From a virus: DNA of 59,205 nucleotides. Below are positions 1,371 to 14,810 of the stretch, piece after piece. The notes beneath the pieces were generated by a model. The model was given only the letters and a program-made list of their open reading frames with translations, did no database searches and was not told where the DNA came from. Position 1 is the first letter of the stretch. Each line of letters starts with the position of its first letter. The stretch covers positions 1 to 59,205 of IMG/VR virus record IMGVR_UViG_3300007076_000006. The stretch is one strand, 5' to 3'. A program made the translations under genes and the position numbers.

Positions 1371-1670
1371 TCAAGCTTGATTTCCCGGCGTTTCGGGCTT
1401 TGCCCGCGTATGCGCTCGGGTGCGCTCGGGTGCGCTCGGGTGCGCTTTTACGCGGGAAGTTTTTTTCTCCTCGCGTTCGATTTCGAGATTACGAATCGCC
1501 TGATCGATGTCGTTCTCCGTCCATTTTGGGCCAGCCGCCTCTACCGGGTCGGCCAGGATCTGGCGTTCCATGAGGGTGTCCAGGTACCGAAGCGAAACGC
1601 GAAGCATGTCGGCGACTTCCTGACGATTGAATAGTCGGGGTCTTTGCTTCGCTCGTTGCTCATCAGGCAT
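1371..1670 (-). CDS. Excisionase/MerR-like helix-turn-helix protein
   Basis: 99 residues. Residues about 14-45 (LFNRQEVADMLRVSLRYLDT) match the winged HTH of small excisionase-like DNA-binding proteins, where a sheet-turn segment recognises DNA. The C-terminal 40 residues are basic and disordered. GAGGTGA precedes the ATG. A 10-bp tandem repeat lies inside the C-terminal coding part. Being in the early operon and not beside the integrase, it may be a regulator and not Xis. Confidence 0.55.
   Translation of the reverse strand: MPDEQRAKQRPRLFNRQEVADMLRVSLRYLDTLMERQILADPVEAAGPKWTENDIDQAIRNLEIEREEKKTSRVKAHPSAPERTRAHTRAKPETPGNQA
1411..1440. repeat. Three tandem 10-bp repeats within a CDS
   Basis: TGCGCTCGGG occurs three times head to tail and begins a fourth copy. 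Three units are 30 bp, so gain or loss of one unit would shift the frame of the HTH gene's basic tail. Confidence 0.8.
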
Positions 1671-2482: not shown

Positions 2483-3112
2483 TTAGCTTTCGATCTCCGC
2501 GTCAAAGTTGGTGATGAGAAAACGGCCATAGGTGGGGCGGAAGTCGGCCAGGCCCACGAGTCGCCCGGCGTTTGTGAGTACGTCCTGGAGGTCAGCCGGG
2601 CGAATGTATTCGGGCAGGAGGACAAGTAATTGGAATTCGGCTTTCCAGCCGGCCTTGATCGCTGGCCTCGTGCGGGTGATGCCGTTCCGCTGAACGGTGA
2701 CGCGGCACTTGTGCTCATAATCCCACTTGTCAATGCCGAGAGAGCTGAACTGGGTCAGGCTGACGACGCCAGCTTTGTAAAGGTCCATCGCGGACTTGCG
2801 GGGCGATCGCGGGTCCTGCCGGAACTTCGCTGCGTGGATGACGGATTGGCGGACGTACTCGCCGGGAATGCAAATCTTGCCGGCGTCGTCGCGGAAGACG
2901 TAGGACTCAATGTTATCGCTCTTCCGGGCCTTGCTGCCCTTTGCAGCACCGGCCTTCGCTTCGACCTCCTCCACGTTCCACCGGTGAAACAAAAGGTCCG
3001 CCACGCCCTGCAAGCGGAACGTCGCGGTGTAGGGCTTGGAAAATTCGATCGTGTCGAGGGCGCCGTTAGTTGGTGCTTCACCACCGATTGCTGCCGTTCG
3101 AGCAGATACCAT
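2483..3112 (-). CDS. Early phage protein, possible RAMP-like or ssDNA-binding fold
   Basis: 209 residues. I chose the ATG at 3112 because GGAAGGAGA lies directly upstream; a longer frame to 3187 runs into the pentamer array. The N-terminus (YTATFRLQGVADLLFHRW) looks like a ferredoxin-like first strand and helix. The middle has ICIPGEYVRQSVIHAAKF. The C-terminus has a glycine-containing segment GRLVGLADFRPTYGRF. I recall similar phage proteins beside recombination genes, and this last segment resembles RAMP/Cas7-like folds. That is recall, not a search. Its place before Gp157 suggests a DNA-metabolism role. Confidence 0.5.
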   Translation of the reverse strand: MVSARTAAIGGEAPTNGALDTIEFSKPYTATFRLQGVADLLFHRWNVEEVEAKAGAAKGSKARKSDNIESYVFRDDAGKICIPGEYVRQSVIHAAKFRQDPRSPRKSAMDLYKAGVVSLTQFSSLGIDKWDYEHKCRVTVQRNGITRTRPAIKAGWKAEFQLLVLLPEYIRPADLQDVLTNAGRLVGLADFRPTYGRFLITNFDAEIES

Positions 3113-3133
3113 AAGTTTCTCCTTCCACATGAA

Positions 3134-3391
3134 CCCCACCATGCCATGACGAACACCACCCGGCCGCGTCGTGCCTATCCACTCCAAGGCGGACCAAAAC
3201 TGTGCCTCGCCGAGCCAGGCCTATCCCCGTCTAGCCCAACCACGCCAGCGCCTTGCCGCGCCCAGCCAAACCTGACCTAACCTGGCCCCGCCATGCCGGG
3301 CCACATCCAGCCGCGTCGGACCAAACCAAGGCCGCATCGGACCAGAGCCAGCCTTGCCTAATCACGCCTAACCTGGCCACACCATGCCATT
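3134..3391. repeat. Pentamer-phased CC array (CCNNN)n
   Basis: Across about 260 bp of non-coding DNA, CC (sometimes TC or GC) recurs every five bases on the plus strand, for example CCAAA CCTGA CCTAA CCTGG. Roughly fifty units are nearly in register, with a few one-base slips. The three bases between the CC pairs vary, so it is a spacing repeat, not a sequence repeat. The transcribed RNA would carry GG every five bases. It lies between two early genes and contains the leader of the 2483-3112 gene. Confidence 0.8.
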
Positions 3392-3396
3392 CTCCG

Positions 3397-3783
3397 TTAC
3401 TTCGTGGGCTCGATGGATTCGCCCTTCTTGGAAGCCAGCTTGCGGAGCATCTCGGCGATACCGTCGAGCTGCCACGGGCAGGGCTTGGTCAGCTCGGCAG
3501 GGTTGGCTCGGTTCAGCCACACGATGGCGGCCTGGGCGATGAACTGGCTGGGCGAGTTAATCAGCCGCAGGGCAGTGACCGCATCGCACATGCCGGAGAC
3601 CAGGTCCTCCAGGAGCGAGGTCCGGCCGGCATCCGCGGCCGCCTGCTCGATTCGCGCGGCTGCCGTCGGCAGGTTGTTCAGCGCCTCGATACGATCGATC
3701 TTTTCACCAAAGGCCCCGCGAGACTCGCTGCGGCAGCGGGCAATGGCTTGCATGAGATCGCGGGGAGCTTTGAGCTGATCCAT
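3397..3783 (-). CDS. Hypothetical early protein
   Basis: 128 residues, first sizeable gene downstream of the leftward promoter at 3958-3986. CAGGAG lies before the ATG. It is mostly helical in appearance, with one SPSQFIAQAAIVWLNRANP segment and a C-terminal GIAEMLRKLASKKG. No membrane segment or zinc motif. No family recognised. Early position suggests takeover, recombination or regulation, but nothing in the sequence decides this. Confidence 0.6.
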   Translation of the reverse strand: MDQLKAPRDLMQAIARCRSESRGAFGEKIDRIEALNNLPTAAARIEQAAADAGRTSLLEDLVSGMCDAVTALRLINSPSQFIAQAAIVWLNRANPAELTKPCPWQLDGIAEMLRKLASKKGESIEPTK

Positions 3784-3906
3784 GATGGGCTCCTGGGTGC
3801 CGGTAAAGGCCCGAACGCCCCAGCCACCGTTTCGCCGTGGCGGGCCTCGCTAGCTGCCGTGTCTCGCTCCGGCTGCCCATGCGTTGCCGTGATTTAGCTC
3901 TCGGCC

Positions 3907-4037: not shown

Positions 4038-4066
4038 TTGACGGCATTGGCAGTTGCTACTATACT
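4038..4066 (+). promoter_or_regulatory. Promoter of XRE repressor A
   Basis: TTGACG (4038-4043), 17-bp spacer, TATACT (4061-4066). The expected start site falls at about 4073-4074, on the ATG itself, so the mRNA would be leaderless. The spacer holds a half-operator. Confidence 0.7.
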
Positions 4067-4073
4067 TCTGGGC

Positions 4074-4349
4074 ATGGACGCCGAGACAATGGCGCGAGCC
4101 GATTACTTCGGGAACCGGCTGCTGGCGGTCAGGAAGGGCGCCGGCATGACGCAGCAAGAGCTTGCCGACAAGGCCGGCCTTACCCAATGGTCGATTGCTC
4201 AAATCGAAAATGGCCATCGGGTACCCGGCTTTGAAACAGTGCTCGCCCTGGCTGAGGCCCTCGGCGTCCCACTTTCGGCCTTCGACCCATCAACCGAGGT
4301 GCCGAAGCCGAAACCGAAGAAGCGTAAGCCCCGCCGCAAGCCCGACTGA
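4074..4349 (+). CDS. XRE-family repressor A (CI-like candidate)
   Basis: 91 residues. An HTH of the XRE/Cro family covers residues about 12-66 (MTQQELADKAGLTQWSIAQIENG is the recognition core), followed by a basic KPKKRKPRRKPD tail and no dimerisation or protease-like domain. The ATG at 4074 coincides with the predicted transcription start. It lies divergent from the early leftward promoter, with shared operator sequences, which is the position of an immunity repressor. About half of its residues match repressor B. Confidence 0.85.
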   Translation: MDAETMARADYFGNRLLAVRKGAGMTQQELADKAGLTQWSIAQIENGHRVPGFETVLALAEALGVPLSAFDPSTEVPKPKPKKRKPRRKPD

Positions 4350-4354
4350 CCCTC

Positions 4355-4600
4355 ATGCTGGTGCAAACGATCCGCTTCCAATGTCGCGACGGCCATGCGT
4401 GGGAATCGGCCGTCCCTCGCTTCTGGGTTCGTCTCTCCGAGACGCGTTGCCCTGAGTGCGGCAAAATCGCCCGCGACTGGCGGCTCGGCGGGTGCTCGCC
4501 GCAAAGACCAGCGACGGCATCAAGAAGTTGCCTGGGCTCCCCGTGCGCCCCACTGACCTCACTTACGCGCGCCTGCACCGCCCCCACAATCCAGACCTAA
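4355..4600 (+). CDS. Possible zinc-ribbon small protein
   Basis: 81 residues, starting five bases after the stop of repressor A. The first 45 residues look real: FQCRDGHAW and CPECGK resemble a small zinc ribbon. The rest runs antisense through the truncated MerR-like copy and is of poor quality. The gene may be a fragment whose true end was lost when the module was duplicated. No good ribosome site; translational coupling would be needed. Confidence 0.35.
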   Translation: MLVQTIRFQCRDGHAWESAVPRFWVRLSETRCPECGKIARDWRLGGCSPQRPATASRSCLGSPCAPLTSLTRACTAPTIQT

Positions 4601-4800
4601 TCGTTTCAATGTCCGCTCGGTGTCGCCGCGGCCCGGCAGAATCTCGGCCTTCGCCTCTGTAGGCTTTGGCCGCCCCTGCTTCGGTAGCGCCAGCACTTCG
4701 GCCAGGCTCAGCCGGCGGTGGCCGCCCGGCAGCTCCCACCAGTCGAGGCGCCCGGCATTCATCCAGCGATAGATCTGCGACGGGTGGACGCCGAGCAGTT
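4559..4800 (-). pseudogene. Truncated copy of the MerR-like gene
   Basis: The C-terminal 67 residues (MNAGRLDWWELPGG onward) are about 90% identical to the end of the intact gene at 5248-5556. The upstream codons for LLGVHPSQIYRW are also recognisable up to about 4800. There the homology stops exactly at the 45-bp repeat copy B, which replaces the N-terminus. It is a remnant left by duplication or recombination of the repressor module. Confidence 0.75.
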
Positions 4801-4928: not shown

Positions 4929-4957
4929 TTGACTAAGCGTAATTTTTGACGTATCAT
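4929..4957 (+). promoter_or_regulatory. Promoter of XRE repressor B
   Basis: TTGACT (4929-4934), 17-bp spacer, TATCAT (4952-4957). The expected start is about 4964-4965, on the ATG at 4965, giving a leaderless message as in module A. Confidence 0.7.
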
Positions 4958-4964
4958 GCATGAC

Positions 4965-5243
4965 ATGAGCGAAAATTCCACGATGGCCACCGATTGGTTC
5001 GGGCCGCGGCTCAAAGCGATCCGAGAGAAGGCCGGCTTTACACAGCAAAAGCTGGCCAATGATGCCGGCGTTTCCCTCGCAGCCGTGCAGCGCTACGAAG
5101 GCGGGCGTGGCGAACCAGGTTTCGATATTCTCCTAGCGATCGCCAAGGTTCTTGGTGTCTCGCTCTCTGCATTCGACCCACCCGCCGATGAAGCCGAGCC
5201 TGAAAAACCCGCCAAGCGTAAGCCCCGCCGCAAGGCCGACTGA
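4965..5243 (+). CDS. XRE-family repressor B
   Basis: 92 residues. XRE HTH at about residues 15-70 (FTQQKLANDAGVSLAAVQRYEGG) with a basic KRKPRRKAD tail very like that of repressor A, while the recognition helix differs. The AT-rich upstream DNA lacks the GCAGTTG operator, so it probably recognises other sites. I chose the ATG at 4965, matching the predicted transcription start; an in-frame ATG at 4956 lies inside the -10 box. It converges with the MerR-like gene four bases downstream. Confidence 0.85.
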   Translation: MSENSTMATDWFGPRLKAIREKAGFTQQKLANDAGVSLAAVQRYEGGRGEPGFDILLAIAKVLGVSLSAFDPPADEAEPEKPAKRKPRRKAD

Positions 5244-5247
5244 CAGC

Positions 5248-5556
5248 TCACGTACGCGCGCCTGGGCCGCCCCCACAATCCAGGCCTAATCGTTTCAACG
5301 TCCGCTCCGTGTCGCCGCGGCCCGGCAAGATCCCGACCTTCACCTCTGTTGGCTTTGGCCGCCCCTGTTTCGGTAGCGCCAGCACATCGGCCAGGCTCAG
5401 CCGGCGGCGCCCGCCCGGCAGCTCCCACCAGTCGAGACGTCCGGCATTCATCCAGCGATAGATCTGCGACGGGTGGACCCCGAGCAGTTTGGCTGCCTTG
5501 CTCGGCTTGATGGGATCGGTCGGATAGGGCCGTGTTTCGGTGCGTGTCGCGTCCAT
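5248..5556 (-). CDS. MerR/excisionase-like DNA-binding protein
   Basis: 102 residues from the ATG at 5556. A GTG at 5583 is possible but includes the GGAGGA that could serve as ribosome site. Residues about 17-57 (PSKAAKLLGVHPSQIYRW followed by MNAGRLDWWELPGGRRRLS) form a typical helix-turn-helix with beta hairpin as in helix_turn_helix_17 proteins. The C-terminal half is conserved with the truncated copy. It may be the Xis or an anti-repressor; its position upstream of an integrase-distal operon does not decide this. Confidence 0.65.
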   Translation of the reverse strand: MDATRTETRPYPTDPIKPSKAAKLLGVHPSQIYRWMNAGRLDWWELPGGRRRLSLADVLALPKQGRPKPTEVKVGILPGRGDTERTLKRLGLDCGGGPGART

Positions 5557-5616
5557 GCCTAAATCTACGCGTCGTTCCTCCACTGCGGACGGCGTCGATC
5601 GCGGCGCGAAATCGCG

Positions 5617-13414: not shown

Positions 13415-14350
13415 TCAGCGACGCAAGGCATAGGCCGGCACGAACTGCTGTGGCCGGCTGGCCGGGGCCGCGGGCATCGGCACCGTTTGGGGCTGCGGTC
13501 TGGCCTGGCCGGGCGGCGGAGCGACGTCGGGCCGCACCTGCCCCGGCGGCGTGAGCGGGATCTGCTGCTGGGGCGCCGTGCCAGGGTCAATTTGTTGCCG
13601 CGGGGCTCCACCGATCGGGATCTGCTGGAGCGGAGCAGGGCCGATCGGAATGACCTGCATGGGCGGTCCGCCGATCGGGATCACCTGCATAGGGGGGCCA
13701 CCGATGGGGATCTGCTGCATGGGTGGACCGCCAATCGGGATCTGCTGGAGCGGCGGCGACAGATGGGGGGCGGCTTGTTGCTGACCACTGCCGGGGATTA
13801 GCAGGATATGCACCTGCGGTGCGGGCGCCGGCACTGGCGCCGGGGCCGCCGGCTGCTGGATGATGATCGGCGGCTGCGCGGGGGCCGGAGCCGGAGCTTG
13901 GCGCTGGGCCTCGAGCGCCGCAATCCGCTGCTGGAGGACCTGGATCTGGATCGCTTCGCGCCAGCCGAACAGGCTCGTATGGCTCACGTGGGGGGCCGGC
14001 CGCGGCGGCTCGGCCGATACGGTACCTGCCAGTGCCCCGATTGCCAGGGCGGCGAACAGAAAGGGCAAGACGGCCCCCGCGGCAGTCTTGGCGATGCTCG
14101 CAGCCGACGCCGCCGGAGCGGCCAGCAGGGCCGTATCCTTGAGCTGCGTTCGCGCCTGGATGTACGTGCTGGCCATCTGCCACAGGGCGACGATGCTGAA
14201 CACGCCGGCGATCGCCGTCGCCAGGTGCGAAGAGATTTCGTTGGCCTTGTCCTGGCTGATGACGCCGATGCTCACGACGAAGACCATGATCTTGCCGATG
14301 AGCACGATGTAGGACTCGCTGGATTTCCAGCCGGGCTTCAGGTCGTTCAT
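13415..14350 (-). CDS. Membrane protein with tandem QQIPIGGPPM repeats
   Basis: 311 residues from the ATG at 14350. Two or three hydrophobic helices occupy the first 130 residues (IVLIGKIMVFVVSIGVI; GAVLPFLFAALAIGALAG). A coiled-coil-like segment (IQVLQQRIAALEAQRQ) and a proline/glutamine-rich tail follow, with five decapeptide repeats. The tail would be outside the membrane and extended. Possible roles are envelope interaction, superinfection exclusion or lysis; none is proven. Confidence 0.6.
   Translation of the reverse strand: MNDLKPGWKSSESYIVLIGKIMVFVVSIGVISQDKANEISSHLATAIAGVFSIVALWQMASTYIQARTQLKDTALLAAPAASAASIAKTAAGAVLPFLFAALAIGALAGTVSAEPPRPAPHVSHTSLFGWREAIQIQVLQQRIAALEAQRQAPAPAPAQPPIIIQQPAAPAPVPAPAPQVHILLIPGSGQQQAAPHLSPPLQQIPIGGPPMQQIPIGGPPMQVIPIGGPPMQVIPIGPAPLQQIPIGGAPRQQIDPGTAPQQQIPLTPPGQVRPDVAPPPGQARPQPQTVPMPAAPASRPQQFVPAYALRR
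13611..13760. repeat. Five tandem 30-bp coding repeats
   Basis: Five nearly identical 30-bp units beginning CCGATCGGGA (13611, 13641, 13671, 13701, 13731) encode the decapeptide QQIPIGGPPM and close variants. Being a multiple of three, copy number can change without a frameshift. Confidence 0.9.
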
Positions 14351-14364
14351 TCGAGCGCTCACTT

Positions 14365-14523
14365 TCAGCGGTTGCCCAAGAACATCGATCGAAGATCGCT
14401 CACGATTTGCCGCGCGTCGGCCGCCGTCTCCCGGAGCAAGCGAACCGGCTCGATGCACGCCGCCAGGCCGATGCACAGGCCCAGCAGAAAGCCGATCAGC
14501 GGGTTGCGGAGTACCGGTCGCAT
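14365..14523 (-). CDS. Small membrane protein or lipoprotein-like peptide
   Basis: 52 residues starting MRPVLRNPLIGFLLGLCIGL. A hydrophobic stretch to LAACIEP resembles a lipobox (LAAC), followed by a helical RETAADARQIVSDLRSMFLG. A small outer-membrane lipoprotein spanin would look like this. No clear ribosome site; it is probably coupled to the upstream gene. Confidence 0.5.
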   Translation of the reverse strand: MRPVLRNPLIGFLLGLCIGLAACIEPVRLLRETAADARQIVSDLRSMFLGNR

Positions 14524-14585
14524 GGGTTGCTTGCATGTGGGCGGTGTTGATCCGCCGCATGGTCATTTCGGCCTTGGCGTCCGCA

Positions 14586-14810
14586 TCACTCATTGCGGGC
14601 GATCGCCGCGTTGGAGAGGAACATCACCTCGTCGAGGGCATTGAGCGCCCGGGCCTGTTCCGGGCTGCACGGCGTCAGCTCGACGATCTTTTCGGCGAGC
14701 TTCAGGCACTCGCCGCGGATGGCGGCGTAGCGGTCCGTCTGGTCGCCCTTGGGGGCGTGGTAGACGAAACGGTTCGCAAGCTGCTCGGCGGTCGGCTTCT
14801 GGAACTGCAC
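14586..14810 (-). CDS. acb2: Acb2-like cyclic-nucleotide sponge (anti-CBASS)
   Basis: 74 residues from a GTG at 14810, preceded by AAAAGGGGAA at ideal spacing. The pattern VYHAPKGDQTDRYAAIR, then LAEKIVELTPCSPEQARAL and the C-terminal VMFLSNAAIARNE matches the Acb2/Vs.4 family of small helical phage proteins. These bind cyclic di- and trinucleotides as hexamers and block CBASS signalling. The ending with NxAIARN is the family's most recognisable part. Assignment is from motif recall and is fairly secure. It lies among late accessory genes. Confidence 0.8.
   Translation of the reverse strand: MQFQKPTAEQLANRFVYHAPKGDQTDRYAAIRGECLKLAEKIVELTPCSPEQARALNALDEVMFLSNAAIARNE

What the first reader, a model, noticed from the sequence alone, without database searches (positions are those of the whole stretch)
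3134..3391. Pentamer-phased CC array between two early genes
About fifty successive 5-bp units start with CC (or TC/GC) while the other three bases vary, over 260 bp with almost no slips. This is a spacing code, not an ordinary tandem repeat. The transcript would have GG every five bases, suited to runs of two-layer G-quadruplexes, to spaced protein contacts at half-turn intervals, or to annealing-protein loading. A shorter, less regular stretch lies at about 3815-3895. It immediately precedes a gene that may encode a nucleic-acid-binding protein.
Basis: seen in the sequence. Interest (0 to 1): 0.85.

Follow-up and report, generated by a model that had tools for sequence, protein, structure and literature searches.

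The report
VIPR guide-RNA array in a phage
The odd five-base-phased stretch is the guide-RNA array of a recently described virus-encoded RNA-guided DNA-recognition system (VIPR), with its RAMP-family Vipr protein encoded immediately downstream, so it is a real and striking feature but a new member of a kind first reported in 2026.

Summary
In detail: CC recurs at 5-base steps over window 3133-3388 (lag-5 count 27 against 10.1 in 2000 shuffles, none reaching 27). The second stretch (3815-3895) is not real. The array is non-coding, lies between two minus-strand genes and is transcribed in their direction. A blind search for the same spacing found about 100 phage contigs with such arrays. Their NN bases are almost random and uncorrelated, and the arrays lie next to homologues of window gene 2483-3112. 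That family matches the solved SUSP1 Vipr protein (profile E 1.3e-42), and its predicted fold matches Cas7/Csm3 RAMP subunits. PMC13142463 (2026) describes exactly this pair as VIPR: Vipr plus vrRNAs of alternating GGY/NN that recognise DNA by a one-base-skip code. The G-quadruplex, half-turn and annealing-protein ideas are not supported; the guess of a nucleic-acid-binding neighbour is right. No target was found. A feature not in that paper's main text: the window's Vipr clade interrupts arrays with hexamers (YNNNGG), most others with the tetramer CAGG.

The parts
3133..3388 (-). vrRNA array: 49 YNNGG (GGY/NN) pentamers, transcribed on the minus strand between two genes; three +1 slips split it into stretches of about 13, 10, 16 and 11 units
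   Evidence: consensus identical to the vrRNA consensus in PMC13142463
2483..3112 (-). vipr gene (209 aa; ATG at 3112), a RAMP-family protein, phrog_4652
   Evidence: profile of 78 array-linked homologues hits PDB 36pp SUSP1 Vipr at E 1.3e-42; single-sequence phmmer E 7.8e-5; predicted fold (mean pLDDT 91.8) matches Csm3/Cas7 chains at E about 1e-7, probability 1.00
3117..3124 (-). Shine-Dalgarno-like AAGGAGAA in front of the vipr start codon
   Evidence: read directly from the sequence
3194..3199 (-). six-base unit (TTTTGG in the RNA), a phase slip
3245..3250 (-). six-base unit (CGCTGG in the RNA), a phase slip
3326..3331 (-). six-base unit (CCTTGG in the RNA), a phase slip
3397..3783 (-). 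128-aa gene of unknown family; its stop codon lies 9 nt before the array; possible but untested accessory (vap) gene
   Evidence: no Pfam, PHROG or PADLOC match; no homologue next to the other arrays on hand except the near-identical contig L125

Best explanation
The stretch is the vrRNA (guide) array of a VIPR system. It is transcribed with the early minus-strand genes as YNNGG repeats and bound by the Vipr protein encoded about 20 nt downstream. By analogy with the characterised SUSP1 system, Vipr subunits hold the GGY triplets, and the NN pairs together read a DNA target with one skipped base between pairs, silencing genes of competing phages or prophages. Shown here: array, consensus, strand, randomness of NN, linkage to the Vipr family, RAMP fold. 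Inferred from the paper: RNA processing, RNP formation, skip code, silencing. Unknown: the targets and any accessory protein.
For: Consensus CCNNR = GGY/NN in RNA, the same as vrRNA. Across 153 arrays in 103 viral contigs, NN is close to uniform and neighbouring units are no more alike than in shuffled arrays. Arrays read G-sense with both neighbours in 82 intergenic cases against 5 C-sense. Stop codons occur in all frames at close to the shuffled rate, so the class is not coding. Vipr-family genes occur in 78 of 100 degenerate-array viral stretches against 4 of 20 others, and in 4 of 6 against 0 of 113 bacterial-genome stretches; three more lie elsewhere in the same viral records, a fourth record has a partial match at its end, and one more is in a genome. 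Gene and array share orientation in 155 of 157 pairs. Vipr match to PDB 36pp and Cas7/Csm3 fold. Unbroken stretches are most often 9-12 units long; the paper reports 9-16 repeats per vrRNA.
Against: No target found: six viral-collection scans with the one-base-skip code gave one 9-pair match that does not extend (10 of 16), at chance level. A wider local test of skip lengths on 412 stretches showed no excess for one skip, though on a small corpus that need not hold targets. No 3' tail like that of SUSP1 vrRNAs was identified, and RNA folding of the region is unremarkable (z -1.25). The window array is less regular (CC in 78% of units) than many, so some units may be decayed. Expression was not tested.
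Confidence: 0.95

Rival explanations
1. A G-quadruplex or R-loop element: GG every five bases forms two-layer quadruplexes in the transcript or the non-template strand and regulates the operon.
For: The transcribed strand is G-rich in nearly all cases, and GGN3 repeats fit the two-layer motif.
Against: A quadruplex does not need a pyrimidine after GG, yet 94% of window units have it; it does not explain the linkage to a RAMP protein; a characterised homologous system uses the repeats as guides.
Confidence: 0.02
2. A protein-binding scaffold only: Vipr coats its own mRNA as an autoregulatory or sequestering filament, and NN carries no information.
For: The array lies in the same operon as vipr; no target was found for the window.
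Against: In the SUSP1 system NN positions alone set target specificity; NN is hypervariable between phages.
Confidence: 0.03
3. A decayed or non-functional vrRNA array left in an inactive prophage.
For: CC is kept in 78% of window units, less than in many arrays.
Against: The vipr frame is intact with a good ribosome-binding site; the pattern is still strongly kept (47 of 49 units keep the C at position 2, 46 of 49 the purine); an identical array is in a second contig, L125.
Confidence: 0.1

Closest known systems
VIPR system of Escherichia phage SUSP1 (PMC13142463; Vipr structure PDB 36pp)
   Same: GGY/NN vrRNA repeats next to a RAMP-fold Vipr gene in a phage; profile match over nearly the whole protein
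   Different: Window Vipr is distant (single-sequence phmmer E 7.8e-5); SUSP1 vrRNAs are separate ~100-nt units with a structured 3' tail, whereas the window has one continuous array broken only by three hexamers; no vap1-like gene recognised
VIPR locus in phage DSL-LC04 (OR003939), not annotated as such
   Same: 64% identical Vipr with arrays directly upstream of it
   Different: Two arrays with a 36-nt gap between them; the gene is annotated only as 'helix-turn-helix transcriptional regulator'
Class 1 CRISPR Cas7/Csm3 backbone proteins
   Same: Predicted RAMP fold and glycine-rich C-terminal region
   Different: Single small protein with no CRISPR repeats or other cas genes beside it; 5-nt phased RNA instead of spacer and repeat

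Membership tests
VIPR | Vipr protein: homologue of SUSP1 Vipr | tested here: met
   Profile E 1.3e-42 to PDB 36pp; window protein alone E 7.8e-5
VIPR | RAMP fold (RRM core, G-loop) | tested here: met
   AlphaFold2 model pLDDT 91.8; best Foldseek hits are type VII and type III-A Cas7/Csm3 chains, E about 1e-7; conserved G183, G187, R192, P193, G196
VIPR | vrRNA of YNNGG repeats, GGY conserved and NN variable, next to vipr | tested here: met
   the array ends about 20 nt before the vipr start codon
VIPR | 9-16 repeats per vrRNA | tested here: inconclusive
   Slips divide the window array into about 13, 10, 16 and 11 units, but transcript ends are unknown
VIPR | structured 3' tail on each vrRNA (type II) | tested here: inconclusive
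   No interrupting tail seen; folding z -1.25; the paper says other types have other architectures
VIPR | vap accessory gene | tested here: inconclusive
   Neighbours are a 128-aa unknown gene and a Gp157/Mu-Gam-like gene; neither is a recognised vap
VIPR | targets in other phages matching the one-base-skip code | tested here: inconclusive
   No convincing match
VIPR | vrRNA expressed and bound by Vipr; NN-dependent DNA binding | not testable with these tools
   Needs experiments; shown for SUSP1 in PMC13142463
CRISPR-Cas | repeat-spacer array with cas operon | tested here: not met
   Only short, imperfect direct repeats at the locus; no cas-gene match among its neighbours

The most novel reading that the evidence does not exclude
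The window's Vipr clade (with L039, L043, L080, L076) uses a distinct array grammar: continuous, apparently tail-less arrays punctuated by variable hexamers (YNNNGG), where most other clades use a fixed tetramer CAGG about every 10 units. The punctuation would mark guide boundaries or alter the register in which the target is read, making this a sub-architecture not set out in the main text of the VIPR paper.
Probability: 0.3. Interest if true: 0.6.

Novelty: new member of a known kind. Interest (0 to 1): 0.5.

Why it matters
VIPR is a newly reported form of RNA-guided DNA recognition, proposed as older than CRISPR. This window adds a divergent, unannotated example, and the same blind search shows such arrays in about 100 viral contigs, in mycobacteriophages and in MAGs of several phyla, including an archaeal one. 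The punctuation difference between clades is a testable hint about how guides are delimited in continuous arrays.

Tried and rejected
Ordinary tandem repeat: rejected, Tandem Repeats Finder finds nothing there and neighbouring units are uncorrelated across the class. Coding repeat: rejected for the class. Planctomycete intergenic repeat (my first guess): literature search gave nothing relevant. RNase P / tRNA RCCA mimicry and Rho or CsrA decoys: considered while reading LittleE's T-arm-like hairpins; dropped once the Vipr match appeared. Known RNA families including hammerhead: none near the window array, none at the gathering score near the arrays of 14 related loci. Genome-collection scan: dominated by simple tandem repeats, only about 6-7 of 119 stretches are true arrays. 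Target decoding: no result.

Full report
OBSERVATION. The 5-base phasing at 3133-3388 is genuine: lag-5 CC count 27 against 10.05 +- 2.8 in shuffles, none of 2000 reaching 27. An HMM with free NN finds one array in the window, 49 whole units and three slips, all +1. Position 5 is a purine in 46 of 49 units (P 7e-14), so the unit is CCNNR. The flanking genes at 2483-3112 and 3397-3783 both lie on the minus strand, so the mRNA carries YNNGG, that is GGY followed by two free bases. The array begins 9 nt after the stop codon of the 128-aa gene and ends about 20 nt before the ATG of the 209-aa gene, which has its own AAGGAGAA.

HOW COMMON. Over 5119 CC-units, position 3 is nearly uniform, position 4 mildly C/T-rich, position 5 is 71% G and 24% A. 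Units at lags 1-24 are no more alike than after shuffling within arrays, which argues against recent tandem duplication as the source. The arrays are read G-sense with both flanking genes in 82 intergenic cases against 5, typically starting within 20 nt of a stop codon, and stop codons occur in them at close to the shuffled rate (341 against 375, and 469 against 598 on the other strand). A similar scan of bacterial and archaeal genomes gave mostly simple tandem repeats. Cultured mycobacteriophages (Saal, ByChance, LittleE) and phage DSL-LC04 have them. The scans were cut off, so these are not prevalence figures.

THE PARTNER PROTEIN. Starting from the window gene 2483-3112, an iterative HMM search over all fetched ORFs found 93 homologues in 92 loci. 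By a stricter definition of a degenerate array, 78 of 100 viral stretches with one hold a homologue against 4 of 20 without; in bacterial-genome stretches 4 of 6 against 0 of 113 (Fisher P about 1e-6 each). Searching the whole records of array loci lacking one found it in three more viral records, a partial match at the end of a fourth, and one genome. Homologue and array have the same orientation in 155 of 157 pairs, with the array downstream in 101 and upstream in 45. All 78 aligned members match phrog_4652, 'unknown function'. No Pfam family covers them.

IDENTITY. The profile's only significant PDB match is 36pp, 'SUSP1 Vipr protein', E 1.3e-42 over almost the full length; the window protein alone reaches E 7.8e-5. 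AlphaFold2 gives a confident model (pLDDT 91.8) whose best PDB neighbours are Cas7-like chains of type VII and type III-A CRISPR complexes. PMC13142463 (bioRxiv 10.64898/2026.04.26.720920) reports VIPR: a RAMP-family Vipr protein and vrRNAs of 9-16 YNNGG repeats, in which the NN pairs recognise double-stranded DNA with a one-base skip, mainly against competing phages. I reached the consensus, the strand, the NN randomness and the protein partner before finding that paper; they agree with it.

WHAT IS PARTICULAR HERE. Arrays slip in a clade-specific way. In most loci the slip is -1, and 161 of 218 tetramers are CAGG; across the loci on hand they recur at a median of 10 units. In the window and its close relatives L039, L043, L080 and L076 the slip is +1, a variable hexamer usually ending in GG (20 hexamers, 1 tetramer; L084, 53% identical, has the tetramer). 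I do not know whether this is in the paper's supplement, which could not be read here. Attempts to find targets failed: exact 9- or 10-pair patterns gave one non-extending match. That is weak evidence, since mismatches could not be allowed in the collection scans and the host is unknown.

CONTEXT. The window is a 59-kb tailed-phage contig with integrase, terminase, portal and tail genes. The gene after vipr is a Gp157 / Mu Gam-like protein. No accessory vap gene could be assigned.

VERDICT. A new, divergent member of the VIPR kind. Membership rests on homology, fold and vrRNA consensus, all met here; expression, binding and targets are untested for this locus.

Noticed in passing
L029 5129-5200 and L081 566-640, 1241-1320 (records of about 105 kb): Array stretches of 14-16 units with no gene of the Vipr profile anywhere in the record: either a divergent Vipr or orphan vrRNAs using another element's protein.
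   Followed up: partly
L246 2790-3200 (Mycobacterium phage LittleE): Short hairpins resembling tRNA T-arms (TTCGANT loops) lie between the pentamer blocks; they could be the vrRNA tails of that clade.
   Followed up: no
L008 639-1200: Several vrRNA-like blocks separated by a conserved ~45-nt hairpin-bearing spacer, a clear repeated tail architecture next to a Vipr 60% identical to the window's.
   Followed up: no
L245 2923-3167 against L247 2972-3162: Arrays of related mycobacteriophages Saal and ByChance differ by loss or gain of a whole block ending in the tetramer, while the remaining units are nearly all identical: blocks, not letters, turn over.
   Followed up: no
window 4038-4762 and 4956-5583: The HTH repressor gene and the facing small gene appear twice in tandem with clear similarity, a duplicated regulatory cassette.
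   Followed up: no
window 13607-13753: Tandem repeats of 30/60 nt (multiples of three) inside a large ORF (13415-14593).
   Followed up: no
window 1411-1446: Perfect 10-nt tandem repeat (TGCGCTCGGG x 3.6) at the 3' end of a small gene resembling excisionase/transcriptional regulators.
   Followed up: no
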